A stretch of 60,453 bases of DNA from Gymnopus androsaceus JB14 (lineage: Eukaryota > Basidiomycota > Agaricomycetes > Agaricales > Omphalotaceae), in assembly GCA_009733575.1 (NCBI GenBank), contig ML769761.1:1-60453 (forward strand). The letters run 5' to 3'. Positions 1,447 to 53,065 of the stretch are shown in pieces. The position numbers and the translations under genes are program-made. Positions within the stretch are counted from its first letter, which is position 1, and each line of letters opens with the position of its first letter. The notes beneath the pieces are model-generated. The model was given only the letters and a program-made list of their open reading frames with translations. It did no database searches and had not been told where the DNA came from.

Positions 1447-1634
1447 GGAGTTGTGGACGGGTGAAAAGCACGAAATGAAATATAATTGGCAAGCTAATCT
1501 ACTGAACAATGTTACAAGGCTTGATAGCTACATGAGCCCTACAGTCAGGAAAAGATGCAATGCTGTGATCAGATTGGATCGGCTCACCTAGCGTGAATTT
1601 CCATGAGGAGCTCATGACGCTCCTTAAGGTCGGG

Positions 1635-2087
1635 TCAGTGAAGATCAACATATTCCTTCACATCAGGGCGGTAGCCAGCGCGTAGGATCCTCAAAATTTG
1701 GCGATCGGTAGCTTCGCCAGGTGTGAATGCCCAAGCGATGGACTCGTATTGCGACAGAAGGCGTCCTGTATAAACACGATCGTCCTTGCAGCCTTTACAT
1801 TCGCAACGGATAACGCCGCCTTGTTGGGAATGGGGGTGCCTGCAGTTCAAGTCATAGGATATCTGAGTTGCCCACGCGGAAAGGCGACTGCTCTGGGCAT
1901 CCAAGACATCAGCTTGCTCTGCCAGGAGAGAATCCATCAGAGTGTCCATATCGACGTTTCTGCTTCCAGAGGAACCAACATAAATTAACCATATTCAAGG
2001 AAATGAATAATGATGAGGACTCACCGTTCCCCGCGCTGTAATTCTGGCCCAGGACCTTTGGGCTGCCTTGGGGGAGTATCTTCATAG
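1635..2087 (-). CDS. Hypothetical protein, 3' exons
   Basis: Two exons can be placed on the minus strand: 2087-2025 and 1962-1635, separated by a 62-nt intron (GTGAGT...GGAAG). The joined frame reads '...GPELQRGERRNVDMDTLMDS' and then 'SSRLSAWATQISYDLNC'. It carries two CxC/CxxC-like pairs in 'CRHPHSQQGGVIRCECKGC' that might bind a metal, and ends '...RPDVKEYVDLH' at a stop at 1635. The start lies upstream (2090-2450) but I could not fix it, because the candidate exon there does not join in the required phase. The family is not recognised. Confidence 0.4.
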
Positions 2088-3720
2088 CTAAATAATAGAA
2101 ACCAATCAATGCGAAAAAAAACAGAGGGAAATAGATGAAATGCTAACCGCTGAGACATTTATTTCGAGAGTCAATGTAGAAGTGCAAAGAGTCTGGTGGA
2201 GAGGGAGTCGACCAAGCGAGGTTAGTTTTTATACATGACAAAAAAAAATGCCAGATTGTAGGGTTGAAAGAATGATTATTATTAATTTTATGATGAGTAC
2301 CAAGCGATGGATCGCCTGGGATGAAAGAGGGTTGGATGGCAAGCCTTACAATTGAGAATACCCAAACGATGCCAGGTTTGCTCAGCGACGAAGAGCAGGA
2401 GTCATCCTGAGAGTCGGAGGAAAGCCATGTGCAAGGACCCACCTAAGCAAATTAAAATTAACGTATTGAGCTAAATAGAGGATTCAGCGTATGTTTGTTG
2501 CAGAATAAGAGACAAGCGTGCATACTGGTAATACGGGTGACATCTGGAGGTGGTAGCCATAGCAGAGGTAGGCATGCGAGACGATGCTGAGATAGTAGAA
2601 ATGGAGGATGAGGGAGAAAGTAATGAGAAGGTAGTCGTAAGAACGTCGAAATTCACGTTCGGATAGGTTCCCGAGCCTTCCGATACTCGAGCTGATCGTT
2701 CCGAGTATTGCACTTGGGACTCCAGATTGTAATGGATAGCTATACAGCTCTTGGAGTATAGTTTAATATACCTAATGATGTATAATCCCAAAACTGGAGC
2801 GAATTAAATTAGAGATAAGACCGCGGTCAAGGTGAAGTTGTTCCGTGGGGTTGTAAGTAGCCCAAAATATTAACGACGAGGTGAATAACTCACTCAGATC
2901 AAGTTCAACGGCCCAGAAAAATTGGGAGGTCAGTTTAGAGTACATATTTTTGATTCTGAGAAGTTTGTGCAATGATCCAACGTGGAGTACCTGTTTTACA
3001 GTGAAAGAAAGCATTGGGAAACTATACGTCTTCCAGAAAGTGGCGAGCAAAATATTGGGAATGCTTGACCTATTCAATAAGCGTATTTAGACCCTCAAAA
3101 TGTGGTAGTGGTGCCACTGGCGGAACTCCTTGAGTTTGAAGAGCAACGTGTACAAACTCCGTGCTCAAGCTCACCATCATGAATGATGAACGGCACTCTG
3201 ATTGTAGGCCGGTCACCAATTTCTGTCTGGAGTGGGCACATTGAGTTGGGAGAAGTTAAAAACTGGTATCAGGACTCCCAGGGGTGTCTACTGCAAAATC
3301 CGAGAGTAGCTTGAGAAATTAACTGTGAAGATGAAGCGTGCTCATTGTTTTCGACGACGACGGCAATGGGCGCCTAACAGGCGCTTGGCATTGACGCCCG
3401 CAAACGGAAGTCATTCCTCTTGCTAACCTTGACGTTCAACTCCTCTCGTTTGCTACTCTTCGTCACAAAAAGATATCAATACCTTCGGAAGACTATTAGA
3501 AGTGAGATACGATGCAACTGAAGCCACAAGAGGCACTAGAGCTCAATAATACAGACGGATCGTTTGCGCATCTTTAATGTGAGTCGTTTACACACCTTCC
3601 GCGGCCTCAATAACATTGAATCTTTGAAGGACCTTGATTTAATCCTTGCGAAAGTTGGGCCTCACAAGAATGAGCAAAAAAACGATAGCATTATTACAAT
3701 TAGGATGCAAAACAAACTTG
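2088..3720. other. Unresolved stretch, possible 5' exons
   Basis: Minus-strand open pieces at about 2143-2442, 2471-2791 and 2772-3077 have mixed character and could be 5' exons or leader sequence of the gene ending at 1635. No reliable junctions were found. From 3080 to 3720 I see no gene on either strand. Confidence 0.3.
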
Positions 3721-4415
3721 TTATATAACGTTGGGGCGGCGGGTAACGGCAACGAGATGGAGAGCATGAAGCCTCTCCTCTGCTTCCTTCAGATCCTCCA
3801 TGGCTTTGCTGAGCACACTTTTCCTGTGATTGGCTAGCCGGGCATCTTCAGTCGCTCTGGCAAACTCTGCAGTGAGAGGCGTTTCATTGGCTCGCAGTTT
3901 CACGAACCGTTCAGCAAGCTGCTGCTGAGTGAAAGTCGGCAATTTGGTGTTCTGGAGCCGAGCCGTGTCGCTCGAAAGGTAGACTGAAAGTAGCACCGGT
4001 CAGTTCTTTGTTCAATTGCTGAGAGCAGCTGCTCTGACTAACGTTGCGCCTTCACCCAAGCAAGGGTGTCCAGGAAGTCCAGTGCGGTATCACGGGAAGG
4101 ATCGTCATCATCCGCCACCGTTTTGAAGTCCTCACGGACGTTCCTCAACACTTCCTCAGCCGGATCGCGATGACCCCAGTCTCCCCACCCAGTGCCTTTC
4201 GAACCCCATCCCCCATCACCATAGGTAGGGCTACGAGCGGGGAGCCATGCTAAATCCTCCGCTGGTGGATCAGGAGGTTGAGCGTTCATGGCACTGGCCT
4301 CATCGCTTTGATCGACGTCATCGATGTGTTCACTCGACGAGGAGGCCACATCAATGAAATCAGGCGCAGGCCCTGGTACAACAGGAAAGTTTGGAGAAGG
4401 GTTCGGGTCTGTCAT
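3721..4415 (-). CDS. Hypothetical acidic protein, two exons
   Basis: Exon 1 runs 4415-4043 and exon 2 runs 3983-3721, with a 59-nt intron (4042-3984, GTTAGT...TTTCAG) that joins the frames exactly ('...LAWVKAQL' to 'YLSSDTARLQ'). The start is the ATG at 4415. The N-terminal half is disordered, rich in proline, serine and acid, with a Gly/Trp run ('GDGGWGSKGTGWGDWGHRD'). The C-terminal half is helical and charged ('ARLANHRKSVLSKAMEDLKE'), probably a coiled coil. No catalytic motif, signal peptide or membrane span is visible. It lies head to head with the gene at 4631, about 215 bp away, so the two may share a promoter region. Confidence 0.55.
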
Positions 4416-10590: not shown

Positions 10591-12300
10591 AACACATACC
10601 CTGGCGTGTGCCGGTCCTCCCGATTCCCCCCAGGTCTAAATGGACGAGGTCATTAAAGTAGTCAAGGATAAAATTCAATCTGGCATTTACGAGCCGTCGA
10701 ATTCGTCCTATCGGTCCCGTTGGTTTACAGTGGTTAAGAAAGATGGAAAGTCGCTGCGAATCGTTCATGATTTGCAGCCTCTGAACGCAGTCACGATTTG
10801 TGATTCATCAATTCCGCCAGTCTTGGAGCACCTAGCAGAATGGTATGCGTGCCGGGCAGTTCTTGCAGCGCTGATATCTTTGTAGTTATAATGAACGTTC
10901 CCTGGCCATCTCCTCCCGCGATCTCACAACATTCCAAACCCCTCTTGGTCCTTTCCGTCTAACTGCTATTCCCATGGGTTGGACGAACTCCGTCCAAATA
11001 TTCCACGGAGACGTCACCTTCATTAATCAACCTGAAATCCCCTGAATTCACCATTCCCTATTTGGACGACGTTAATGTTTGTGGCGGTCCTACTCGCTAC
11101 GAACTCCCGGATGGCTCGTTCGAGACAATTCCGGAGAATCAGGGAATTCGTCGATTCATCTGGGAACACCTCCAGGTGGTCAACCGTATTCTCCAACGTA
11201 TGAAGTATGCTGGGGGTACGTATTCTGGTCCGAAGGCCATCATCGCGGCGTCTGAAGCCCTTATTACTGGCCACCTCTGTTCCTACGAAGGTCGTAAAAT
11301 TGACAAATCGCGGGTGGCGAAAATTGTCAATTGGGGTCCTCTACTTAAGCTCACAGATGTCCGGGCATTCCTAGGTACCACGGGTCTTTGCCGGAACTTT
11401 ATTGAGAGGTTCGCCAAGTTGGCTGAACCTTTGACTCGGTTAACGAGACGAGATATCCCTTTCCAGTTCGGGGAACTGGAAGCCCGTACTCAACAATGCT
11501 TAAAAGACGCGGTCCTTTCAAGTGGTGCTATCCGTCCTCTGGTCTATGTGTCTGGCATCCCAGTCATTCTTGTTGTCGATACCTCAAATATCTGCATTGG
11601 TTTTATAATCATGCAGCCCTCTCCCGATAATCCCTCAGTCCGCTATATCAATCGTTTTGGATCCATTACTTTAAATTCTCGTGAAGCTAATTACAGTCAG
11701 GCCAAGCTGGAACTTTACAGCCTTTTCCGTTCCTTACGTGCAACTCGTCTATGGACAGTTGGTGCGAAACACTTCGTTGTTGAGGTAGACGCACTCTACA
11801 TCTCGTGGGATGATCAATAACCCCGATATCCAGCCCAACGCAACTATAAATCGTTGGATTGCTGGGATTTTACTCTTCAACTTCACAATGTTCCCATGTC
11901 CCTTCTGAGTGTATCGCTGCGGATGGCGTTTCACGCCGTACTCCTCAACCAAACGATGATCCTGAAGATGATGGTGACCATGAAGACTGGATAGACCGTG
12001 CAAACGGGTTTATTCATTTTATTAACTTTTCTGTCTTTCAACCTTCCTCCCTCAACAGACTTTCAACCTTTCCGGTATTTGCCACCGAGTCTATTTCCTC
12101 TCCGCATTCATCTTCAGATGAATTTATCCCTTACGAGTCTATTCCGTGGTCAAAACAGGCTATTCGCGTGGATTCACGTATGGATTCCGTGCGGGAATAC
12201 CTCTCATCCCTCCAACGACCAGAGGGTCTTTCCGATGACCCTGGGCCCACCGCGAGGGTACAATCCAGTTTTGTTTCAAACACACCGTTAATCCAAACGC
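9800..12300 (+). mobile_element. Ty3/gypsy pol remnant (RT and RNase H)
   Basis: Decayed pol sequence of the type common in Agaricomycetes. Recognisable pieces in order: 'FTPTGRYTQERKDIIDSVHD'-like sequence, 'SGIYEPSNSSYRSRWFTVVK' and 'KKDGKSLRIVHDLQPLNAVT' (RT fingers), and a palm region with the degenerate YLDD box at about 11060 ('YLDDVNVCGGPTRYELPDG'). The connection follows ('VNWGPLLKLTDVRAFLGTTG'), then RNase H ('ILVVDTSNICIGFI', 'EANYSQAKLELYSLFRSLRA'), and past it 'IAADGVSRRTPQPNDD'. The longest intact frame is 11062-11820; stops and frameshifts interrupt the rest. No integrase, chromodomain or confident LTR was found. The element is not functional. Confidence 0.85.
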
Positions 12301-15589: not shown

Positions 15590-16329
15590 CGTGTCTGTCG
15601 CGCTTCATACGCGTATGCACGCGTATGACTTTGCGACAAGGCCCTTGTACCATAGCTACAAGGCCCTACATACTTACCAGTTGTCGGTGCTCTCGGGCAC
15701 GTTTTGTTCCTTACTACTTACAGTTACCAGTACAACTACTTCAGTAGCATTAGACATTTAGGGGACTCGGTACGTAGAAAACCAGTATCAAGTCGAAACA
15801 CAAAGTAGTTTAGATTCCCCAATATACCGTTCCTTTTCCTGCAAACAACCTCGATTGACCCTCTCGAACCCGAAGCGCGTTCACGTCTACGCACGCGAGC
15901 AAGCTTTACAAGGGACTTCGAGAATTGGATATAAGGATGAGAACTGAACTTGAGAAAAAGGTACGCATGAATGGAACACTGATAAATGATGCCGGCATCA
16001 AAAAGACAAGAGCTTAGTAGCTGCTGTATTGATACCTTGATTTCTGAAGATCAACCCCAGTCAAAACCTACAATGGGAATATCTGGTAAAATCTGGGAAT
16101 ATCGGGAACTCTGGAAATTTCCAGGGCCCTGCCAAATTTTTCCAGATTCCTGCTGCTTTTCTGGGCGGGTATGGAAATATCTGGTCAACAAATCACTTAT
16201 CCAGACTACATCTGGGTTTATATGGGATCATCTGGATATTAGTTACTACTACTGCTACTACTGCTACTATACACGATACCACTGGCCTCCGCATCCCACT
16301 GTACCTGTATCCTTTCTTCGTCGTTGCGC
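15590..16329. other. No gene; repeat fragment and microsatellite
   Basis: At 16049-16225 lies a repeat beginning 'gatcaaccccagtcaaaacc' with repeated 'atctgg' blocks; part of it recurs inverted near 28905-29000. A short (ctactg)n microsatellite sits at about 16240-16275. No coding segment is recognised. Confidence 0.45.
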
Positions 16330-16943
16330 CGCTGTACTGGTATCTGCAAAAAGATAGTTATAAGTGCAAAATAGCCACAAAGCAAGTGTACTCACGTAAT
16401 AGATTAATCTTTGCTGACCCGCTGGGATTCTGCAACTCAGAAAGGTATGTCAGCGAAGTACCCTTGGCACAAGCAAATTGGACTTACCTGATGAATCAGC
16501 TTGTTGAGATTCCGAGGCTGCACTCTCCTGCTGTTCTTTCCATTCCTTTTTTTGGGCACTGATTCTATCCTTCCAGACCTACGTGAACAATATCAAAAGT
16601 GTATTGATACTGGAAGTCAAGCAGAACATACCCTTCGTTCCAATTCAGGAACTGCATTCCAAACTTCTGTAGCCTTCAACTTGAGGAGAGTATTTGTTTT
16701 CAAGTATTCCTTGAGGTACACGTTTCTGGTGATATATCAGTAGATCGGATAGGACCAATACAAACATTTCATACCTGGCGGTAATCAGGAAACCATCTTC
16801 CAGCACAAACAATTTGGTATCCTTCTTCAACGGTTTCTTTGGCAGCTTTGGCTTTGTAGTCATGATCAACAGTGGTGGAAGAGGTTGAACGGTACATGAG
16901 ATGGCTAAAGATGCACTGTTGGACATTGTGTGAGTTAGGAACT

Positions 16944-17152
16944 TGTAACGCCCCCGATCCCTGATCGGCAGGACCTCAGTCTCTACAGGTGGCGGCGCGT
17001 TCCTGCGCCTGCCAATATTCTATATTATAATAATTATATTGTAAAAACACCTTAGCTTTAAACCATCACCTCGCAAGTAACGCACTGAATAAATCCAGTA
17101 GTACTCGTTTGCGTGATACTAAGGCTCTAGGCTCCATTTAGGAGCCGTTACA
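16944..17152 (+). repeat. Left LTR (209 bp)
   Basis: TGTAACGCC...GTTACA. It differs from the right LTR at five positions, all transitions. It keeps CpG at three of them where the right copy has TpG or CpA. Confidence 0.92.
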
Positions 17153-19929
17153 CTTTTTTGAGTACCTGTGTACTCTTCAGCAATCCCTGTGAGATGCCAA
17201 GTCGTTACGACGACTCAGGTTACGGTGACGTGGTAAACATCGCCAATAACCATTATTGGAATTGCTACGGCAATTCTAGCAACAACGATGTTTTTAACAT
17301 CGTCAACCATTCAAAAAAGATTCACGGCAGTGAATCTTACAACAGTGACCGTTTTTGCGTCACTGGTGCCAGTGCATGTGCGGGCACAAATGATTTTAAG
17401 CCCTCGCGTTGGGCTGGAAATAATAACGTTCAGTTTGAACGTTCAAATGTGGCCTCGACCACGCTTGAATCACCGATTGGGTCATCCCAATCCGGTGATT
17501 TCTTTCAATTATGTGCAACAGCACAGTCCACGAGCCAAAAGGCTCTCCATGAGATTTCGAAGCTCAGGGAAATGTTAGCAAACACTAACATAACATGGTC
17601 CACTCCTCTGGGAGACGTTCCATACCGGAACATTAGAGGTATTGACGGCGATTGGCAGCCCAGCTATGGCTGGAAAGGCACAAAGCCTTGCAGTCATCCC
17701 CGCACACCTGGGGGTGAATATTCACCTACAGGTGACTCTCTGACACCTCTGGTGTTCTCGTCTCCCACTCCCGCTCCTCTTCCTCATCTCCCTTTGTCTC
17801 CCACACCTTCCTCTCGTGTCCAAGAAATTGGAAATACCCAATTCCCTGACCAGGCAATTAAAAATTGGGCTGGAAACAATGTTAATGTTTATAACATTGT
17901 CAAACCGAGTCATTTTCATGACTCGGTGCCCCAGGATGCGTCCCGTATCATACCCCAGCTTGACTATAGCCAAGCTGGACCCTTCTATGTTCTTACGGAA
18001 CATGTAGGTGTTGCTCCGGCTGCACCCAATTCCCAAATTGGGCTAATACCTCAATTTGGGAATTCTAGTGCCAGTGTACATGCTGGCACAAACGAGCTGC
18101 GACCCAATTTACGTTGGGCTAATGGCAATGCTATTCGCATTGCCAAACCAAGCAACTCGGCACTTCAATCACCGATCGGGTCATCCCAATTTGATGATTT
18201 CTTTGAAGCATGTGCGAAAGCACATGCCGCGAGCCAAAAGGCTCTCCGTGAACTTTCAGAGTTCACGGAAAATTTTCAGCTCGACCCACATCGGGCCAAT
18301 GGCAATGTTTGTTACATTGCCAAACTGAGTCATTTTCACGACTCGGTGTTTAATAAGGCCAAGGACACTGTCCCAGGCATGGTTCAGCTTGACTCTGGTC
18401 AGGCTGAACATCATAGTGTTCCTTGCGAACATCTTAGCGTGGCTAATGCCATGCTCACGCACAGTTTTCAGCTTGACTCTGGTCAAGCTGAGTATCCAAA
18501 CGTTCTACCTGAACGTTTTAGTGTGGCTAACGCCACACTCAAATCACCGTTTGGGTTACCCCAAAACGCATTTCCTGACCGAGTCCATCCTAGGATTGAC
18601 TCGGGAGGACAAACTCATCGAGGAGAAGACCCACGCAGGAACGTCAGAGATACTGACAGAGACCGATGGGCTGACATTGCTCAGACAGGCCTAAGGCCTT
18701 CCTGTCATCCCCGCTCATCTGATGGTAAAATTTCACCGCCAGATGTCTCTCTGACACTTCCCGTGTCCTCATCTCCCCCTCCCACCCCGGTTCCTCACCC
18801 TTGCGTTGATCCGCATCCCAAATCAATTCAAGAGGAGAGGTTCACCCCTCGGAAGGCTATGCCTTCCAAATTGACAGTGGTACACAGTACCAAAGTTCAT
18901 GTTTTGGCACAACCAAGCCCTTGAAAAGGGATTGGATGGACCGAGTCGCTGTCCAGCGACTCCGTGACCGAGATCTCCAAGAAATTGGAGATTCACAATT
19001 CCCTGACCAGGGAATTCTTTTTAATATCAATGGGTACCCCGTTGATAGACTCCTGGACAGTGGGAAAGACCCACCGTCCAGAAATTGTGGGGGGCAAATC
19101 CGTCGTAAACTACGACGGATTTCTGAAACTCACGGAGCAAGCTCAAAATGTGTACAACGTTCACGAGCAAGCTTCTTTTCTCTTTGAGAGGGGGAGGGCC
19201 AGTGTAGAAATACACTAGCTCACTCTACATCTCAAGTACATGGGATTAAAAATCCCTCGAAACACAATTCACCAGAGGATTGGGTACGGTACATCCAGAG
19301 GTACCCCAACCAATGTCCTACTGGCATAAAGTATGATCACGATGATCATACTCTTACCCGTAATGTACGTGGATGGTTACTAGTAAGTAACCATGCCCCA
19401 GTTATAGCAGCGGGGACTTCCAAGGTGAAGCAGCACTGCTTCACCTTACGAACAGCGGAGTTGTTCACAACTCCAGGACTTTATGCATCCATTACCGGAT
19501 GTGATGAGACAAATATTGTCTCGAATATTTCAACATCACCATATACAGGTGACATTGATAATGCTATGTTGTATGATGTAGCCTTGTTTTACGCCTCCCA
19601 AGGCATTACCATTGAAATGGGAAAAGACATAACTGTCTTTGCCCTTCAGTGGTTGACTATGTTCTGTACAACGGACCCTAGTCTTGGATGCGAGTTACGT
19701 GCAACACGTGACCGTGTTCTTCACTCCCGTTTCTGAATACATGGCACACTACCATGCATTTGAAATCCCAGGACATATTCATGACACGCTATCGTGAATA
19801 TGTTCCCAACTTCAACTATCAAGTTGAAGTTCTCACAAATATGCTCCAGCTGGGTTGACACGCTATCAAACCAGTTGGGGGCCCCTTTCCTTTTCAATTG
19901 AACTGTAGGCTCAATCTGGCTGGGGAGGG
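17153..19929 (+). repeat. Necklace of about 60 short perfect hairpins
   Basis: Inverted repeats with 5-12 bp arms and 2-10 nt loops follow one another with little spacing. Examples: 17259-17276 (GAATTGC, loop TACG); 17285-17303 (ACGATGTT, loop TTT); 17468-17500 (AATCACCG outer and ATTGGG inner arms, nested); 18208-18227 (GCATGTGC, loop GAAA); 18520-18539 (AGTGTGGC, loop TAAC); 18943-18962 (GAGTCGCT, loop GTCC); 18973-18992 (ATCTCCAA, loop GAAA); 19097-19121 (AATCCGTCGTA, loop AAC); 19330-19352 (AGTATGATCA, loop CGA); 19422-19447 (AAGGTGAAGCAG, loop CA); 19808-19831 (AACTTCAACT, loop ATCA). Several loops are stable tetraloop types (GAAA, TACG). The pattern ignores the ORF boundary. Confidence 0.9.
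17194..18924 (+). CDS. Element ORF, 576 aa, no known domain
   Basis: This long frame opens 42 bp after the left LTR; I take the ATG at 17194 ('MPSRYDDSGYGDVVNIANN') because the frame upstream starts only with TTG. The protein is Ser/Asn/His-rich with no recognised fold. It contains an internal duplication: 'SPIGSSQSGDFFQLC' with 'SQKALHEISKL' recurs as 'SPIGSSQFDDFFEAC' with 'SQKALRELSEF', and 'CSHPRTPGGEYSP' recurs as 'CHPRSSDGKISP'. Its position suggests a Gag-like role. In a different frame just downstream (about 19010-19065) 'NINGYPVDRLLDSGKD' resembles the D-S-G start of an aspartic protease, which would fit gag-protease order after a frameshift. Codon choice is constrained by the hairpins that run through the whole frame. 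Confidence 0.55.
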   Translation: MPSRYDDSGYGDVVNIANNHYWNCYGNSSNNDVFNIVNHSKKIHGSESYNSDRFCVTGASACAGTNDFKPSRWAGNNNVQFERSNVASTTLESPIGSSQSGDFFQLCATAQSTSQKALHEISKLREMLANTNITWSTPLGDVPYRNIRGIDGDWQPSYGWKGTKPCSHPRTPGGEYSPTGDSLTPLVFSSPTPAPLPHLPLSPTPSSRVQEIGNTQFPDQAIKNWAGNNVNVYNIVKPSHFHDSVPQDASRIIPQLDYSQAGPFYVLTEHVGVAPAAPNSQIGLIPQFGNSSASVHAGTNELRPNLRWANGNAIRIAKPSNSALQSPIGSSQFDDFFEACAKAHAASQKALRELSEFTENFQLDPHRANGNVCYIAKLSHFHDSVFNKAKDTVPGMVQLDSGQAEHHSVPCEHLSVANAMLTHSFQLDSGQAEYPNVLPERFSVANATLKSPFGLPQNAFPDRVHPRIDSGGQTHRGEDPRRNVRDTDRDRWADIAQTGLRPSCHPRSSDGKISPPDVSLTLPVSSSPPPTPVPHPCVDPHPKSIQEERFTPRKAMPSKLTVVHSTKVHVLAQPSP

Positions 19930-20138
19930 TGTAACGCCCCCAATCCCTGATCGGCAGGACCTCAGTCTCTACAGGTGGCGGCGCGTTCCCACGCCTGCCA
20001 ATATTCTATATTATAATAATTATATTGTAAAAACACCTTAGCTTTAAACCATCACCTCGCAAGTAACGCACTGAATAAATCCAGTAGTACTTGTTTGCGT
20101 GATACTAAGGCTCTAGGCTCCATTTAGGAGCCATTACA
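19930..20138 (+). repeat. Right LTR (209 bp)
   Basis: TGTAACGCC...ATTACA, about 97.6% identical to the left LTR (five transitions in 209 bp). It is followed directly by the target duplication gaact. Confidence 0.92.
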
Positions 20139-21424
20139 GAACTGTATTATGAAGAAGAAAAATTACAGTGGGTTGACAGAAACCTGTGAAGTATATTAGA
20201 AATTATACGCAGCAGAAAAATGGGCTTACTCGATGCGGTGGTTTTGTGGTAACGATGGGTGGGCTGGAGCTGTCCAAGGTAACAGCTTTGGTTAAACTGG
20301 TGGTAGCGCTGGCAGCAGTCACTTCTTCCAAGTTGGAACTAGTAGCTGCTTCGTTGGATGAAGGGTGGCTTTATTGTTCATGTTATTGTTGGCAGTTGAG
20401 TTTGAGCTGTCATTGGTCGAGCATGAGTTGTCATTGCCTGAGTTCAAGATATTGTTGCTCATGTCGGAGCTATTGCCATTTGAACCCAAATTGCTGTCAT
20501 TCAAGTTTGAGTTGTCATTGGTTGCATTTGGGTTATCCTTGGTTGCAATATGGGTGTCATTGGTGATGTTGGAGCCATTGTTGGTCAGGTTCAAGTCCAA
20601 GCTCAAGCTAGCAGTGGAGTTGACATTTGAGCTGGTGGTGGTGATAGTAGGGATGGCTTTGCTGTCTGTAGTGCTGACCATTGTGGAATGACTGGAAATA
20701 GGGACATCTACTGGGGAGAGATTTGATGGGCTCTGATAAAGCTCACATTGGACACAGTAGCAAAGATAGTGAGACTGAAAGAGGGGAAGGTGCCACTGAG
20801 GGAGAATGAGCCACATCAACAGAGAAGGAGACATAGGAAAAGTACTGTTAACAGTCATCTTGCACTTGTTCTTTGGAGGGGGCTTGGATTTATCACGCTG
20901 GGATTTTGATTTCTTGATATCAGATTGAAGAACTATATACACCTGTCAGTGAAAGAAAGACAAGTCTTGAACATGGCATACCTGAGATGGATGAGTTGCA
21001 CTGCAAATGACCACTCTCCCTAGTTGATTGGGTCCATTCAGGGTAGTTCTTGATTGCATATAGCCGAGCCTTCCATCGACCATTGTCACAGAACCGGAAT
21101 TCTTCATAAGTTGAAGCCATCTTTGCATAAAAGTAGTCTGCAACATGATCATCAACACCATTGTGCCAAGTATGGGGATCCAAATCCTGGATATAGAACT
21201 GGTTCCAGATAGACTTTGAAGTGGCTGTGAACTCTTTCATATGAGCTTTGTCCTTGATAGAATATTTCCCAGTGCTAGACTGCAGGTAACCGAGTTCATG
21301 TGGGTTACTACCAGAGTTGGCCTTCTTCTTCTTCTATTCAGTCCACAAGCTAAGAGTAAAGTATTGGATCTCAGCACAGTCCATTTCAGGATCAAGTTGG
21401 GAGAAATTCCAGTAAAAGAAGAGA

Positions 21425-21643
21425 TGTAATAGTCCATGTGGCATGAGATAAGATAAATGTTCATAACATTACCCTCCCTATAGGGTTCTGGGTCTAGGCT
21501 TGTACATTAGTATATATAGTAGTTGTAGCTGTAGCTTAGTCCTTAGCTTCAATCTTGTCAATACCTCCTAGTCCTCAATACATTCTTCTTCTCTTTTACT
21601 CATCATTCTTGCTTTTGCCTAAGTTGAAGTTGTTGACATGGTA
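21425..21643 (+). mobile_element. LTR-like fragment running into the gap
   Basis: 21467-21638 matches, in opposite orientation, the LTR-like sequence at 28272-28777. It ends TTGTTGACA, followed by 'tggta', the first bases of an initiator-Met primer site, before the gap. 21425-21466 also matches the distal end of the right-hand copy, but in the same orientation as that copy, so the left side looks rearranged. Confidence 0.5.
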
Positions 21644-22635
21644 NNNNNNNNNNNNNNNNNNNNNNNNNNNNNNNNNNNNNNNNNNNNNNNNNNNNNNNNN
21701 NNNNNNNNNNNNNNNNNNNNNNNNNNNNNNNNNNNNNNNNNNNNNNNNNNNNNNNNNNNNNNNNNNNNNNNNNNNNNNNNNNNNNNNNNNNNNNNNNNNN
21801 NNNNNNNNNNNNNNNNNNNNNNNNNNNNNNNNNNNNNNNNNNNNNNNNNNNNNNNNNNNNNNNNNNNNNNNNNNNNNNNNNNNNNNNNNNNNNNNNNNNN
21901 NNNNNNNNNNNNNNNNNNNNNNNNNNNNNNNNNNNNNNNNNNNNNNNNNNNNNNNNNNNNNNNNNNNNNNNNNNNNNNNNNNNNNNNNNNNNNNNNNNNN
22001 NNNNNNNNNNNNNNNNNNNNNNNNNNNNNNNNNNNNNNNNNNNNNNNNNNNNNNNNNNNNNNNNNNNNNNNNNNNNNNNNNNNNNNNNNNNNNNNNNNNN
22101 NNNNNNNNNNNNNNNNNNNNNNNNNNNNNNNNNNNNNNNNNNNNNNNNNNNNNNNNNNNNNNNNNNNNNNNNNNNNNNNNNNNNNNNNNNNNNNNNNNNN
22201 NNNNNNNNNNNNNNNNNNNNNNNNNNNNNNNNNNNNNNNNNNNNNNNNNNNNNNNNNNNNNNNNNNNNNNNNNNNNNNNNNNNNNNNNNNNNNNNNNNNN
22301 NNNNNNNNNNNNNNNNNNNNNNNNNNNNNNNNNNNNNNNNNNNNNNNNNNNNNNNNNNNNNNNNNNNNNNNNNNNNNNNNNNNNNNNNNNNNNNNNNNNN
22401 NNNNNNNNNNNNNNNNNNNNNNNNNNNNNNNNNNNNNNNNNNNNNNNNNNNNNNNNNNNNNNNNNNNNNNNNNNNNNNNNNNNNNNNNNNNNNNNNNNNN
22501 NNNNNNNNNNNNNNNNNNNNNNNNNNNNNNNNNNNNNNNNNNNNNNNNNNNNNNNNNNNNNNNNNNNNNNNNNNNNNNNNNNNNNNNNNNNNNNNNNNNN
22601 NNNNNNNNNNNNNNNNNNNNNNNNNNNNNNNNNNN
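21644..22635. other. Assembly gap (992 N)
   Basis: A run of N. Apparent open frames across it are artefacts. It lies inside a repeat-rich inverted arrangement, which probably explains the failed assembly. Confidence 0.99.
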
Positions 22636-24330
22636 TATAAGTGGAAGCCTATATCTCTCTCTGGTACCTTGTGTTGTGAGGAACTAGTTGCTGACACCAT
22701 TTCTCACTTGATCAAAAGACATAGAAGTACAGTAGCATGGTATGGAATAATTTACTTCTTCAAAATATTTTTAAGTAATTTACTCAGCTTTCTAATCCTT
22801 TTTTTTTTTTAGCTTTTTGCACAGTTTTTCCAATCTTTGCATGGATTGGAATCGAGTTTGCTTCTGCTCAGAATGTGTGGGTCTTCTGGCAGCAGTTCCA
22901 TCCAGGACTTTCCGCTCCCATCTCAGTGTAACAGAGAAAGGAATACAAGAGAGATAGAGGAACACAATCAACACTTCTTGTTTGGAAAATCTGCTTGGTC
23001 AAACAACTTCAATCTCTTCCACACTTGCAATGCAATCTCCATCACCATTTCCAAACTTTAAACAAAACACTCCTTCATTCTTTGTCCTACACTCGCTCCT
23101 TCAGGTAAGACCTTGTTCAGGGATCACAACCTAATCCCTTCACTCGTTCTTCCTTCATCCACTCATAGCCCTCATCATATGACTATTGTCGCTCCTTATC
23201 CTTTACCCTATTCACACCCTCCTCAGGTTTGTTTGTCCTGAACAAACTTGTGACTAGCCAGGAGTGGAAAAAAATAGGCCATTTCTTCGGCAGTGACAGC
23301 AGACAAATAAATAATTCATAGAGTCCCTGTGGCATGGGAAACTAGAATGTCGGTGTGTATGGATGGGGGGACATTGGATATAAGACTGGAGATGAGATAC
23401 TGTAGCCAAATTGTATTGACCAACCAAACACGGTTGCGGCAAACAGCTCTCAAAGTATTGCTAAAATAGTCAATACAACGATCATTCCAATAGCAATACC
23501 AATGCTCGCTCTTTGGAATGGACCCTTTACAGACTTCGGTCTTGTCTCTATTAGGAATCTTGAAGCATGAGAAACCTGTTGCAGAATTAAGATGATCCAA
23601 GCACACTGTGTAGCATACCATAAAAGGTGCCAGTCTGTAACTTGATCAAGGAATGTTGGATTGTGGAAAAATGATTTGTTCAGCGTCTAATTTCAATGTC
23701 TGAACCCAGCGCTAATTTGCCTTTTACAGACAGGCAGTCTCATTGACTATAAGGTAGTCACCCATACCCAGCCCTAAAACCAAGCGCTCATTCGCAAACA
23801 CCATTCCTTTGGTGAATTGAATCTTCTCCAACCCAATTCAACCAAAGAACACTGTGTAGAAGCACACCAGCCCCCAGTCTGTTGCTTTGTCAAACTACTT
23901 TGTTAATCCAATTAACTGCCTTATTAAGGGACAAGGGAATCCCAGTGGTCTGTTGTGCACTAATCCAATTAGCCACCTTGTTGTGATCCATGGCCAAGGG
24001 AAACCACTACAAAACACTGCTCCCCTCTGGGTCACACCCAGATATGGTAAATACCATCATTGACTAGCTAGATAGGGGGTTCCTCTGACTGCTTTGCAAC
24101 TTTGAACTTGCCAACCTGACAGGAACAAATTCCTGTGCAATGATTCTGTCCCTGAGGATTGGGTATTAATCACTGCCTTCAGCAACCCTGGGTCTGATTG
24201 ATTGGACTAAAAAGTCACTCATTGCAATTGTTGGCACCTGCAGGTCTTAAGTTGGTACAGTGAACATTAACGACTTTGAACAGGTTAGCAGTTTAAGGTC
24301 ATGCACCATTGGACCTGTCGGAACTGTTCT
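22636..24330. other. No gene; repeat-derived flank
   Basis: 22660-22691 ('ctggtaccttgtgttgtgag' and onward) matches the inverted sequence next to the LTR-like copy at 28272. The rest, to 24330, shows no coding segment. The reading frames present look like chance. Confidence 0.45.
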
Positions 24331-48067: not shown

Positions 48068-51000
48068 CTAAATGAATGCACTCACCACATTCTCTGAATA
48101 CTTGATTGGTTCTTGTGCTTGCATAGCAGAGGCTAGCAGCTTGCAAATATTGGAATGGCCATGTTTATGTGCAAAATCAAGAGCAGTAAATCCATCATCA
48201 GTCTGTGCATTGACATTTACTCCTTTTCCCAGGAGGTGATGTACAACTTCTGTGTGACCATTTTGAGCAGCAATTATAAGGGGAGTAGCATTCCTCAGAC
48301 CAGGGATATTCATGTCAGCTCCATAATCCAGCAGAAGCATGACAATGTCAAGGAACCCATTTTGAGATGCTTGTCTTACAGCAGTAGAACCATTCTGATT
48401 TTGTGCATTTACATTGGCCCCATTCTTCAGTAGGAGAGAAACAATATCAAAATGGCCTCTTTGAGCAGCAATAACAAGAGGAGTAGTTTCGTGGAATCCT
48501 GGGATATGTGGGCAAGCCTCATGGTCAAGTAAAAGCTTGACAATTGTAACATGACCATTCTGGGATGCCTGCCTTAAGGCAGTGGATCCATCTCCAGCTA
48601 AGCCATTTATATTTGATCCTCTGTCTACAAGAAATGAGACAATATTGAAATGGCCTTTTTGAGCAGCAATCACAATAGGAGTTCCACTTTGGATTGATGT
48701 ATTATCCAGGTCTGCCCCAGATTGCACCAGAAGCTTGACAATTTCAAAATGGCCATTTCGTGAGGCTAATCTCAAAGCTGTGGAACCAGCTTGATTTTTT
48801 GCATTCACATCTGCACGATGCTCAATCAGGATAGAAACAACATCCAAATGACCTTGTGCTACAGCAATTATAAGTGGTGTATCTTTGTGGAATCCAGGAA
48901 TATCCTTTTCTGCCCCATGGTTCAGCAAAAGCTTGACAATTTCAAAATGGCCCTCTTGTGATGCTTGTCTCAAAGCAGTACTACCATCTTCAGTTTGTGC
49001 ATTCACATTTGCCCCATTCTCAATCAGGACAGAAACAACATGTGTATGTCCATTTTCTGCTGCAATTATAAGTGGTGTGTATTTCTTGAATCCAGGAATA
49101 TCCTTGTCTGCCCCATGGTTCAGCAAAAGCTTGACAATTTCACAATGGCCCTCCTGAGATGCTTGTGTCAAAGCAGTATCACCATATTCATCTTGTGCAT
49201 TCACATTTGCCCCATTCTCAATCAGGATGGAAACAACATCCAAATGACCTTGTCCTGCAGCAATTATAAGTGGTGTGTATCTCTTGAAATCATCCTTTTC
49301 TGCCCCATGGTTCAGCAAAAGCTTGACAATTTCAAGATGGCCTCCTCGTGATGCTTGTGTCAAGGCAGTACTACCATCTTCATTTTGTGCATTCACATTT
49401 GCCCTCTCCTCAATCAGGATGGACACAACATCCAAATGACCTTTTTCTGCAGCAATTATAAGTGGTGTGTATCTCTTGAAATCAGGAATATCCTTTTCTG
49501 CCCCATGGTTCAGCAAAAGCTTGAAAGTTTCAAAATGGCCCTCCTGTGATGCTTGTGTCAAAGCAGTACTACCATCTTCAGTTTGTGCATTCACATTTGC
49601 CTCATTCTCAATCAGGACAGAAACAACATGTGTATGTCCATTTTCTGCTGCAATTATAAGTGGTGTGTATTTCTTGAATCCAGGAATATCCTTTTCTGCC
49701 CCATGGTTCAGTAAAAGCTTGACAATTTCACAATGGCCCTCCTGAGATGCTTGCCTCAAAGCAGTACTACCATCTTCACTTTGTGCATTCAAATCTGCCT
49801 CATTCTCAATCAGGATGGACACAACATCCAAATGACCTTGTTCTGCAGCAATTATAAGTGGTGTGTATCTCTTGAAATCATCCTTTTCTGCCCCATGGTT
49901 CAGCAAAAGCTTGACAATTTCAAAATGGCCCTCTTGTGATGCTTGTGTCAAAGCAGTATCACCATCTTCAGTTTGTGCATTCACATTTGCCCCATTCTCA
50001 ATCAGGATGGAAACAACATCCAAATGACTTTTGTTTGCTGCAATGATAAGTGGTGTGTATTTCCTGAATCCAGGAATATCCTTGTCTGCCCCATGGTTCA
50101 GCAAAAGCTTGACAATTTCAAAATGGCCCTTCTGTGATGCTTGTGTCAAAGCAGTATTACCATCTTCAGTTTGTGCATTCACATTTGCCCCATTCTCAAT
50201 CAGGACAGAAACAACATGTGTATGTCCATTTTCTGCTGCAATTATAAGTGGTGTGTATTTCTTGAATCCAGGAATATCCTTTTCTGCCCCATGGTTCAGT
50301 AAAAGCTTGACAATTTCAAAATGGCCTTTCTGTGATGCATGGCTCAAAGCAGTGTCACCATATTCACTTTGTGCATTTACATTTGCCCCATCCTCAATCA
50401 GGACAGAAACAGTATCCAAATGTCCATTTGCTGCAGCTTTTATAAGTGGTGGGTATTTCTTGAATCCAAGAGTATCCCTTTCTGCCCGATGGTTGAGCAA
50501 AAGCTCGACAATTTTAAAATGGTGATTTGCTGATGCTTGTCTCAAAGCAGTATCACCGTATTTATTTTGTGCATTCACATTTGCCCCACTTTCAATCAGT
50601 GAAGAAGTAACATTAAAATGTCCATTGTGAGCAGCAATTAGAAGTGGTGTCCAATTGTTTTCCCCTAGAATCTCTTGGTTTGCGCCATGCTTGACCAAAA
50701 GCTTGACAATTTCAAGATGGCCCTCCTGTGATGCTTGTCTCAAAGCAGTACAACCATGTTCATCTTGTGAATTTGCATGTGCCCCCTCCTCAATCAGGAC
50801 AGAAACAACATCCAAATGACCATTTTCTGCAGCAATTATAAGTGGTGTGTATTTCTTGAATCCAGGAATATCCTTTTCTGCCCCATGGTTCAGTAAAAGC
50901 TTGACAATTTCACAATGGCCCTCCTGAGATGCTTGCCTCAAAGCAGTGTTACCATATTCATCTTGTGCATTCACATTTGCCCCATTCTGAATAAGTAAAG

Positions 51001-53065
51001 ATGTAATATCTAAATGCCCTTTGTAAGCAGCAAGTATAAGCGGTTTCCATTTGTCTTTTCCTGAAATTTCTTGGTCCGCCCCATGGCTCAGCAAAAGCTT
51101 GACAATTTCGAAGTAGCTATCATCTTCCGCCTGTCTGCAAGCGCTGTTATTGTCTTCACTTTGTGTGTTCCGTCCCCACAATGCTGCACATAATGCTGAT
51201 CCCCACATTCCTCCTGTGACATCCACATTTTTTCCATTTACCAACTGCTTGACCATATCTTGAAGACCACACCAAGCAGCATAATACAATGGCTGAGGCA
51301 TAGGCCAATGCCCTTCTGTATCTTCTTCAAATTTTGCTAGTTTTAAACAGTTAACATATGTAGTACCACCTGATTCAATAAGCTTAGAGGCTTTCTGATT
51401 TACTTTTTCACACCTCACAATTTTGGCATGTTTGTACCAGTTCTGAGCAGCATATCTAGAGATTGGATATTCCTTGTTCCATGCTGTTGTATCTGCTATT
51501 TCTGTATCAAACTGTAGTAGATATGTCAAGCAGCTCTCTACTATCACTTTGTGGATCAAAAATTCTTGCATATGGAACTGTGACACTACGGTGCTCACAT
51601 GCGATTTAAGGTGTTCAGATAGAAGAAATTCCTTCACAGACATATGGGCTAGCTCCACAACATTTTCAGTTTGGTCTACATGTATAAGTGTTGCCCCAAG
51701 GAAAGCTATATGTTCTGGAGCTACCCGGTATCTCTTCTCAAATCTGATTACACCATCATCACTTACAAATGCAATGACTTCCCCAAGTGCACTTAATGAT
51801 AATGGTTCCATTGAAAAGCAAAGCCACTGCAGAACCTGCTTTGTATCATCAATACAGGAGGGTTCAATTGCTTGAAGTGCTTGAATATAAGTATCATGCA
51901 GATTGGTAGGGAGTTGATTTAAAACTGAATCAACCTCCTTCAGACCTATACATGATTGCAGTGCAATCAATTGGCAATCGACCCAGCGGAACCTAGGATA
52001 GCAGTCAAAATGGAGATCAACCATGAACAACTTCAACACTCACATTCCATTTGCCCTCCTGGTTAGACTATCTGTAATTTGATTCTTTGTTTCAAGACCA
52101 TGATGGCAAAATGAGTAATCATTTTGCATGGTATAATCAAGAAAGATTTCAACATCAGAATTTATGTCTTCTTTGTCAATATAGATAGTTTTTGAGCAAA
52201 GCTTTTCCAATTCATGGGCATAAGAGATATGTGGACGACTTGCTATCAGAAGATGTAAATAAGAGCATCCTAGTGTCCTAAGCTCTTCTACAAGCTGAAG
52301 AAAGGGCTTGAAGCCTTGATTCTCCATTTCATCAAGCCCATCAATTATAATGAATAATGATTCAACTTTAAGAAATGAAATGACCTCTTTCAAGGTTCTC
52401 ATCAGATCTCTGTCACTTGGCTTGCTTCTGAACTTTTCATGATTTTCATAGAGTTGTGATATTGCCAGGTAAATATCTTTTTGCAATGTGATTGTTGTTG
52501 ACAAGAACAACTGTGATAAAAGAGTTGCGACCATGTTGTTGAAGCTTTGTTTGAATGCATCTCTGAAATCAAAAAAGTAGAATGCCACTAGTTGATTTTC
52601 ATGGGCATCCAAACTCTTCACATGATTGATAATGGCAGATCTAGAAAAAGGTAAGCCATGCATGGATGAACTAATTCCCACATACACTAGGACACTTTTG
52701 CCAGATCCCACTGTATTTTCATCCTCAGCCTCAGAACACAGCCCAAAATTTGAATCCTGAAACTCACCATCACCTTGCAGCCAGAGAAGCGAGTTGGGAG
52801 TTTGCTTCCAATCATTGAAATCCTTTCCTTTCAGAAACCATTCACTAGTTCCAGCGGTTCTTTTTTGTGAAAAGAACTCGTGGCTCTGGGAAGCATTGGA
52901 GGGACTCAACCATTTTATGATTTGGTCTGATTGACTTGTGATTTGAGTGTTACTTGGATCTTGATCATCCTGTAAGTACCCATAGAATAGTGCCAAATGC
53001 AAACTCACATTGAATATACATGGTTTTTGCATTGTGGAAGTGAGCATTCTCCATCTTGAAATCAT
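48068..53065 (-). CDS. NACHT-ankyrin NLR with 32 ankyrin repeats
   Basis: Fungal STAND/NLR-type receptor. From ATG 53065 the frame runs to 'SDQIIKWLSPSNA'. An intron near 52764-52698 rebuilds the P-loop 'LLWLQGDVGSGKSVL', and a second (to about 52640) gives 'SVLVSAIINHVKSLDAHENQ'. Walker B is 'SLFIIIDGLDEM' and a downstream motif is 'LLIASRPHI'. A 51-nt intron (52043-51993) joins 'RRANGMFRWVDCQLIALQSC'. A winged-helix-like region ('TKQVLQWLCFSMEPLSLSAL') precedes the ankyrin array, which alternates two types, 'TPLIIAAENGHLDVVSVLIE' and 'TALRQASQEGHFEIVKLLLN'. In this class the NACHT is an ATP-dependent oligomerisation switch and the repeats sense ligand. No N-terminal effector domain is visible. 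The start is uncertain: one base less in a GGGGG run near 53073 would open a family-like N-terminus ('MSLSMNDAPSMFSG'). A GTGAGT just before the stop could hide a last exon. Confidence 0.85.
48100..51120 (-). repeat. Ankyrin-coding tandem array, dimeric unit of about 198 bp
   Basis: Fifteen two-repeat units (about 66 aa each) follow two more divergent ankyrins. Central units are nearly identical at DNA level ('ttcagcaaaagcttgacaat' recurs on the plus strand), while end units have diverged. Two units are two residues shorter ('AEKDDFKRYTPL'). Confidence 0.9.

What the first reader, a model, noticed from the sequence alone, without database searches (positions are those of the whole stretch)
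17153..19929. LTR element whose whole interior is a chain of perfect hairpins
About sixty short perfect inverted repeats, with arms up to 12 bp, follow one another through 2.8 kb and cross the ORF boundary without change. Loops include GAAA and TACG types. Paralogous modules in the ORF carry hairpins at matching places with changed sequence: TGTGC/GCACA at about 17513 against GCATGTGC/GCACATGC at 18208, and the CAGCTTGAC stems at about 17955, 18386 and 18468. That looks like structure kept by paired change. I know of no described LTR family built this way. Possible roles are RNA packaging, resistance to degradation, transcript-dsRNA evasion, or a copying mechanism that creates palindromes.
Basis: partly seen in the sequence, partly recalled or inferred. 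Interest (0 to 1): 0.92.

Follow-up and report, generated by a model that had tools for sequence, protein, structure and literature searches.

The report
Retrotransposon written as chained hairpins
A mushroom genome carries dozens of copies of a retrotransposon whose body is written as a chain of short perfect hairpins that stay paired more often than simulated drift allows, a design that likely folds its RNA from end to end and would shield it from the host.

Summary
Window 17153-19929 is the interior of an LTR element (209-bp LTRs, 5-bp target duplication). It has 51 non-overlapping perfect hairpins (arms 6-13 bp) against 9.4 in shuffles, and folds 10-16 SD below dinucleotide- and codon-preserving shuffles. 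In 350-nt fragments this copy folds 44% better than shuffles, five others 45-55%, the rest of the window 5.5%. Contig lengths identify the genome as Gymnopus androsaceus JB14. The family is on at least 37 contigs; the 24 other two-LTR copies examined are hairpin-rich. Relatives at 13-26% divergence keep 92 of 155 hairpins, where simulated neutral decay keeps 37. Compensated double changes exceed permutation, also without CpG sites. Younger copies fold better. In the copy inspected most closely the hairpins overlie one long, twice-interrupted frame without a recognised domain; no tRNA primer site or Rfam ribozyme was found.

I read it as a non-autonomous LTR retrotransposon selected for an end-to-end folded RNA, probably a shield against decay or silencing. 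The function is inferred. Strand-specific RNA marks (G-U over A-C, GNRA loops) are not seen, so pairing at the DNA level or on both strands stays open. One-arm copying finds no support. The mobilising partner is unknown.

The parts
16939..16943 (.). target-site duplication, left (GAACT)
   Evidence: sequence
16944..17152 (+). 5' LTR, TGTAACG...CGTTACA; folds into a closed multi-branched structure on either strand
   Evidence: fold z -4.5 / -5.2
17153..19929 (+). interior: chain of 51 perfect hairpins (arm 6 or more), 786 of 2776 bases in arms
17194..18924 (+). open frame from the first ATG of the interior (MPSRYDD...; the ORF listing gives 17158-18924 from a TTG); no Pfam match above cut-off; homologue of hypothetical protein P0002
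19188..19733 (+). 182-codon open stretch in another frame, corresponding to the C-terminal part of P0002 in other copies
18028..18064 (+). longest perfect hairpin of this copy, 13-bp arms
18208..18227 (+).
18245..18269 (+). 10-bp hairpin whose counterpart in relative L057 has four pairs changed on both sides and stays paired
19096..19122 (+). 12-bp hairpin, loop of 3
19422..19447 (+). 11-bp hairpin
19922..19929 (+). polypurine tract GGGGAGGG before the 3' LTR, same in 21 of 25 copies
19930..20138 (+). 3' LTR
20139..20143 (.). target-site duplication, right (GAACT)
   Evidence: sequence

Best explanation
This is a family of LTR retrotransposons in the mushroom Gymnopus androsaceus, with no replication domain found, whose interior is a chain of short perfect inverted repeats likely kept by selection so that the RNA folds from end to end, a fold that would shield it from host silencing and decay. 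Shown here: LTR anatomy, the hairpin excess, its presence in the copies examined and in diverged relatives, retention above simulated neutral decay, compensated changes, and stronger folding in younger copies. Inferred: that the selected molecule is the sense RNA that is packaged and reverse transcribed; that proteins of another LTR element do the copying; and that the benefit is shielding (few accessible single-stranded stretches, while no perfect arm exceeds 14 bp, shorter than what Dicer usually needs - recalled) rather than packaging by a hairpin-binding protein.
For: 51 hairpins against 9.4 in shuffles. MFE z -12.1 to -15.8 against dinucleotide shuffles (4 segments) and -10.2 to -12.5 against codon-preserving shuffles (3 segments), 60 shuffles each. 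Fragment folding excess 43.7% in this copy, 45.3-54.8% in five others, 37.4-45.2% in three diverged relatives, 5.5% in 53 fragments of the rest of the window. 92 of 155 hairpins kept across 13-26% divergence against 36.6 (max 49 of 100) simulated at the full unpaired divergence and 75.2 (max 88) at half of it. Compensated doubles 29 against 10.8 permuted (max 19), and 12 against 3.9 (max 11 of 1000) without CpG. Variants shared by 3 or more copies at non-CpG sites: 17 in 532 stem sites, 90 in 1334 unpaired sites. LTR identity against MFE: Spearman rho -0.82, against hairpins per kb 0.64, n = 19. 80% of predicted pairs lie within 40 nt against 50% in shuffles. 10 of 12 tiles have a lower z on the sense than on the antisense strand (overlapping family copies, weak).
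Against: No clear sense-strand mark: single changes in stems give G-T 73, A-C 68, 20 and 21 for variants in 3+ copies, 7 and 4 without CpG; loop letters A 511, T 509; GNRA tetraloops 7, their reverse complement 13, of 121; 5'-arm G 698, C 649. Predicted G-U pairs are fewer than in shuffles (6.5% against 10.1%), unusual for a selected RNA. Among shallow copies no compensated type shared by 3+ copies lies outside CpG (0; 9 in 1-2 copies). The lower divergence of stems is partly an effect of choosing hairpins that are intact in one copy. No expression, probing or small-RNA data; no partner element found.
Confidence: 0.5

Rival explanations
1. The pairing is selected on both strands or at the DNA level (sense and antisense RNA of an RNA-amplified parasite, or folded single-stranded cDNA), not on the sense RNA alone.
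For: Strand symmetry of single changes (G-T 73, A-C 68), of loop A and T, and of tetraloops; both strands fold far below shuffles; few G-U pairs on either strand; the LTR folds on both strands.
Against: Most single changes are probably decay after insertion or CpG changes, which are symmetric anyway; the clean set is only 7 against 4. No ribozyme or other sign of RNA-to-RNA replication.
Confidence: 0.22
2. Palindromes are made and repaired by template switching during reverse transcription or replication (as Monttinen and Loytynoja 2022 propose for RNA genes), with little selection on folding.
For: Perfect Watson-Crick stems, few G-U pairs and compensated changes are what that mechanism makes (PMC8794818). 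Younger copies fold better.
Against: In 40 diverged hairpins the changes are not concentrated on one arm (0.692 against 0.717 binomial). The 10 hairpins missing in at least 60% of copies are nearly all in old or rearranged copies and mostly differ on both arms. The predicted 5'-G and 5'-U excess is absent. The Gypsy-type fragment in the window lies in a tile of ordinary hairpin density.
Confidence: 0.15
3. A hairpin-rich ancestor, made by duplication of hairpin modules, is simply decaying; the paired changes are CpG hot spots and exchange of whole modules between copies.
For: Modules are repeated and 62-88% alike within and between copies. Many compensated pairs have both intermediates at high frequency and lie at CpG. 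13 of 25 indels... see against: copies decay after insertion.
Against: Relatives 26% away have about the same hairpin density (48 in 2801 bases), whereas the window copy mutated by 26% keeps about 13. Retention and CpG-free compensation exceed neutral expectation. The 5' and 3' parts outside the modules show the same density.
Confidence: 0.1

Closest known systems
[quoted passage not shown]
   Same: Consecutive local stem-loops along the whole RNA, coding part included, seen as a folding-energy excess over shuffles in 350-base fragments (passages of PMC7642675).
   Different: A DNA-integrated LTR element of a fungus. The excess is 37-55% against about 15% for SARS-CoV-2 and 23.4% for the highest coronavirus in that paper; shuffling programs differ. 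Hairpin positions are shared between relatives here, whereas that abstract calls GORS poorly conserved in position.
Retrozymes
   Same: Non-autonomous LTR elements with a strongly self-complementary RNA and a polypurine tract (passages of PMC4918200).
   Different: Those carry hammerhead ribozymes in the LTRs, a tRNA-Met primer site, no coding capacity and an RNA of about 600-1000 nt; here no Rfam ribozyme, no TGG primer site, a long frame and an interior of about 3.2-3.5 kb.
Non-autonomous LTR elements of TRIM, LARD and TR-GAG type (definitions recalled)
   Same: LTRs and target duplication, no pol.
   Different: Interior too long for TRIM, LTR too short for LARD, no gag domain found; none is known to me for a hairpin chain.
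Template-switch hairpins of RNA genes (Monttinen and Loytynoja 2022)
   Same: Perfect stems and compensated changes.
   Different: One-arm signature not found here.

Membership tests
LTR retrotransposon | direct LTRs ending TG...CA with a short target duplication | tested here: met
LTR retrotransposon | polypurine tract before the 3' LTR | tested here: met
   GGGGAGGG in 21 of 25 copies
LTR retrotransposon | tRNA primer-binding site (TGG...) after the 5' LTR | tested here: not met
   CTTTTTTGAGTA or a near variant in 24 of 25 copies (the other is broken there), read by eye; other priming modes not tested
autonomous LTR retrotransposon | reverse transcriptase, RNase H, integrase | tested here: not met
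   Pfam scan of P0001, P0002, P0004: nothing above cut-off
retrozyme | hammerhead ribozyme in the LTR | tested here: not met
   Rfam scan of 16800-20300: 6 matches, none at its gathering score, none a ribozyme
retrozyme | circular RNA intermediate | not testable with these tools
   needs RNA
GORS | folding-energy excess over shuffles along the whole RNA | tested here: met
   every fragment of the six family copies positive (minimum 18.9%)
GORS | genome of a positive-strand RNA virus | tested here: not met
   integrated LTR element
TR-GAG | gag domain in the single frame (recalled) | tested here: not met
   a diverged gag could be missed; the AlphaFold model is uninformative (mean pLDDT 32.9)
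template-switch origin | new hairpins by change of one arm only | tested here: not met

The most novel reading that the evidence does not exclude
The first retrotransposon with a genome-wide selected RNA fold: every stretch of the element, protein frame and LTRs included, is held in perfect hairpins too short for Dicer, so that the RNA is nowhere open to silencing yet nowhere a Dicer substrate, and the reading frame is bent to fit the fold.
Probability: 0.33. Interest if true: 0.88.

Novelty: new variant of a known kind. Interest (0 to 1): 0.76.

Why it matters
In this test the element is two to three times more ordered than the most ordered RNA virus genome of the paper that I compared with, and it does this inside a reading frame and in a DNA-integrated parasite. 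If the fold is selected, retroelements too use genome-wide RNA structure against the host, and a fungus with dozens of copies of known relative age makes that directly testable with probing, small-RNA sequencing and silencing mutants. If it is not selected, an unknown process makes and keeps palindromes, which is as interesting.

Tried and rejected
Known protein families: no Pfam match above cut-off for P0001, P0002, P0004. Homologues: three protein searches gave 4, 1 (the query itself) and 4 hits, from this genome or short metagenome/ENA contigs; I could not test other fungi, since no eukaryote collection was on offer and metagenome scans were capped at 0. Ribozymes and other RNA families: 6 matches, all below gathering score. 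Structure of P0002: single-sequence model, mean pLDDT 32.9, no fold to be read. Autonomous partner: LTR matches outside known family sites were not seen among the 40 scored of 123 candidates, but a few were not checked; a pattern search for shared LTR-end sequence never ran. Copies with longer interiors: L028 carries a mariner-like insert (label by eye) and L044 another unrelated insert, not a helper.

First impressions that I withdrew: equal G-T and A-C first looked like proof against sense-RNA selection; CpG hot spots and decay after insertion explain most of it. Lower divergence of stems is biased by picking hairpins intact in one copy, so I rely. The reading frame: third positions change most and the dN/dS-like ratio is 0.61 and 0.76, and hairpins favour one codon phase (49-63% of hairpins in five of six copies, 48% in the sixth, against 42.5% in codon shuffles); but only 9 of 19 and 5 of 46 small indels are multiples of three, so coding is likely, not proven, above all in the 3' part.

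Rows dropped before counts: of 36 fetched loci, 13 without two recognisable LTRs (L025, L026, L030, L031, L033, L035, L039, L040, L049, L050, L053-L055) were left out; two copies were left out of the 5' block alignment and three (L047, L051, L056) of the 3' block; six copies with inserts or incomplete LTRs were left out of the age test; only well-aligned, gap-free stems entered, and each comparison is counted in both directions.

Full report
What it is. The finding's coordinates are the exact interior of an LTR element: LTRs of 209 bp at 16944-17152 and 19930-20138, TGTAACG...TTACA, 97.6% identical, flanked by GAACT on both sides, with a polypurine tract GGGGAGGG (21 of 25 copies) and no TGG-type primer site. 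Four proteins of Gymnopus androsaceus JB14 that match the element lie on contigs of 64122, 297219, 18284 and 22420 bases, the lengths of contigs C362, C52, C749 and C673 here, so the genome is almost certainly that one (83.3 Mb). Element matches lie on 37 contigs in the listed rows of a search that scored 40 of 100 candidates; a protein search adds others.

The hairpins are real. 51 perfect hairpins with arms of 6 or more (24 with 8 or more) stand against 9.4 and 0.8 in 200 dinucleotide shuffles, maxima 19 and 3. Folding energy is 12.1-15.8 SD below dinucleotide shuffles in four segments and 10.2-12.5 SD below shuffles that keep the protein and the codon use in three. In 350-nt fragments the excess over shuffles is 43.7% here, 45.3-54.8% in five other copies, 37.4-45.2% in three diverged relatives, 5.5% in 53 fragments of the rest of the window (one of which reaches 54.4%). 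Host flanks of the fetched loci hold 4.6 hairpins per kb (66,450 bases) against 13.9-18.4 in 19 copies. The predicted fold is local: median span 18 nt, 80% of pairs within 40 nt. Among 609 distinct perfect hairpins no arm exceeds 14 bp. The LTR folds as well.

The family. Of 37 elements at 36 fetched loci, 24 had two recognisable LTRs; these have 28 (in a 1.8-kb interior) to 66 hairpins. This copy is shorter (2.8 kb) than most (3.0-3.7 kb; two with nested inserts about 5 kb). L036 keeps one frame over nearly the whole interior, interrupted by two stops; NCBI's P0002 (979 aa) comes from that contig. No domain is recognised. Evidence for coding is moderate and uneven.

Kept by more than chance. 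Diverged relatives keep the chain (34-64 hairpins in 2.4-4.4 kb). In stems that align well between copies 13-26% apart, 92 of 155 hairpins are kept; neutral simulation with the rates of unpaired sites keeps 36.6 (max 49 of 100), and even half that divergence keeps 75.2 (max 88). Compensated doubles: 29 of 34 double changes among 931 pairs, 10.8 expected by permutation (max 19); after CpG removal 12 of 15 among 807, 3.9 expected (max 11 of 1000). Between paralogous modules: 8 of 8 doubles (1.9 expected), 2 of 2 without CpG (0.5 expected, max 3, so not significant). The clearest case is a 10-bp stem with four pairs changed on both sides between L023 and L057. Structure decays after insertion: LTR identity correlates with folding energy (rho -0.82) and with hairpin density (0.64), n = 19. 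CpG loss lowers GC and may add to the energy correlation.

What selects it. If the sense RNA alone were selected, G-U should be tolerated over A-C. It is not visibly so (73 and 68; 7 and 4 in the cleanest set), nor do loops or tetraloops favour the sense strand; fixed one-mismatch stems seen in 10 or more copies are 2 G-T, 1 A-C, 4 other. Folding z is lower on the sense strand in 10 of 12 tiles, a weak lean. So the strand is undecided. Template switching predicts one-arm change: not found. I therefore commit to selection for folding of the element's RNA, at 0.5, with a both-strand or DNA-level requirement as the main rival. The benefit, shielding from silencing and decay, is inference; the 14-bp ceiling fits it (Dicer's need for longer duplexes is recalled), and packaging is not excluded.

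Known relatives. Works like GORS of RNA viruses (passages of PMC7642675) but is not a member: it is an integrated LTR element. It shares self-complementarity with retrozymes (passages of PMC4918200) but lacks their ribozyme, primer site and size. Ten paper searches listed no LTR family of this design; I saw listings there, the abstract, introduction and Discussion of PMC8794818, and passages of the two papers above.

Noticed in passing
window 48068-53065 (-): NPHP3_N-type NTPase frame (52040-53065) directly followed by a 1323-aa ankyrin-repeat frame: probably one NLR-like gene cut by a stop or intron.
   Followed up: no
window 11062-11820 (+): Fragment with RT_RNaseH match, of Gypsy type by eye, in a tile of ordinary hairpin density.
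   Followed up: partly
window about 21000-23000: Very AT-rich stretch (20% GC) between the element and ordinary sequence.
   Followed up: no
L028 interior 1558-3188: Hairpin element interrupted by what looks like a Tc1/mariner transposon.
   Followed up: no
L044 interior 2216-3870, L052 220-1133, L047 2149-2717: Other unrelated inserts nested in copies of the element; the one in L044 holds many CCCAG/CTGGG-type short repeats, as does window 16060-16240 in part.
   Followed up: no
P0007 (95 aa, ENA contig of 652 bases): A 48%-identical relative of the C-terminal part: the only sign of a more distant family member, source unnamed.
   Followed up: no
window 16944-17152: LTR ends form a 7-bp inverted repeat TGTAACG/CGTTACA that closes the folded LTR; many changes there are at CpG.
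   Followed up: partly
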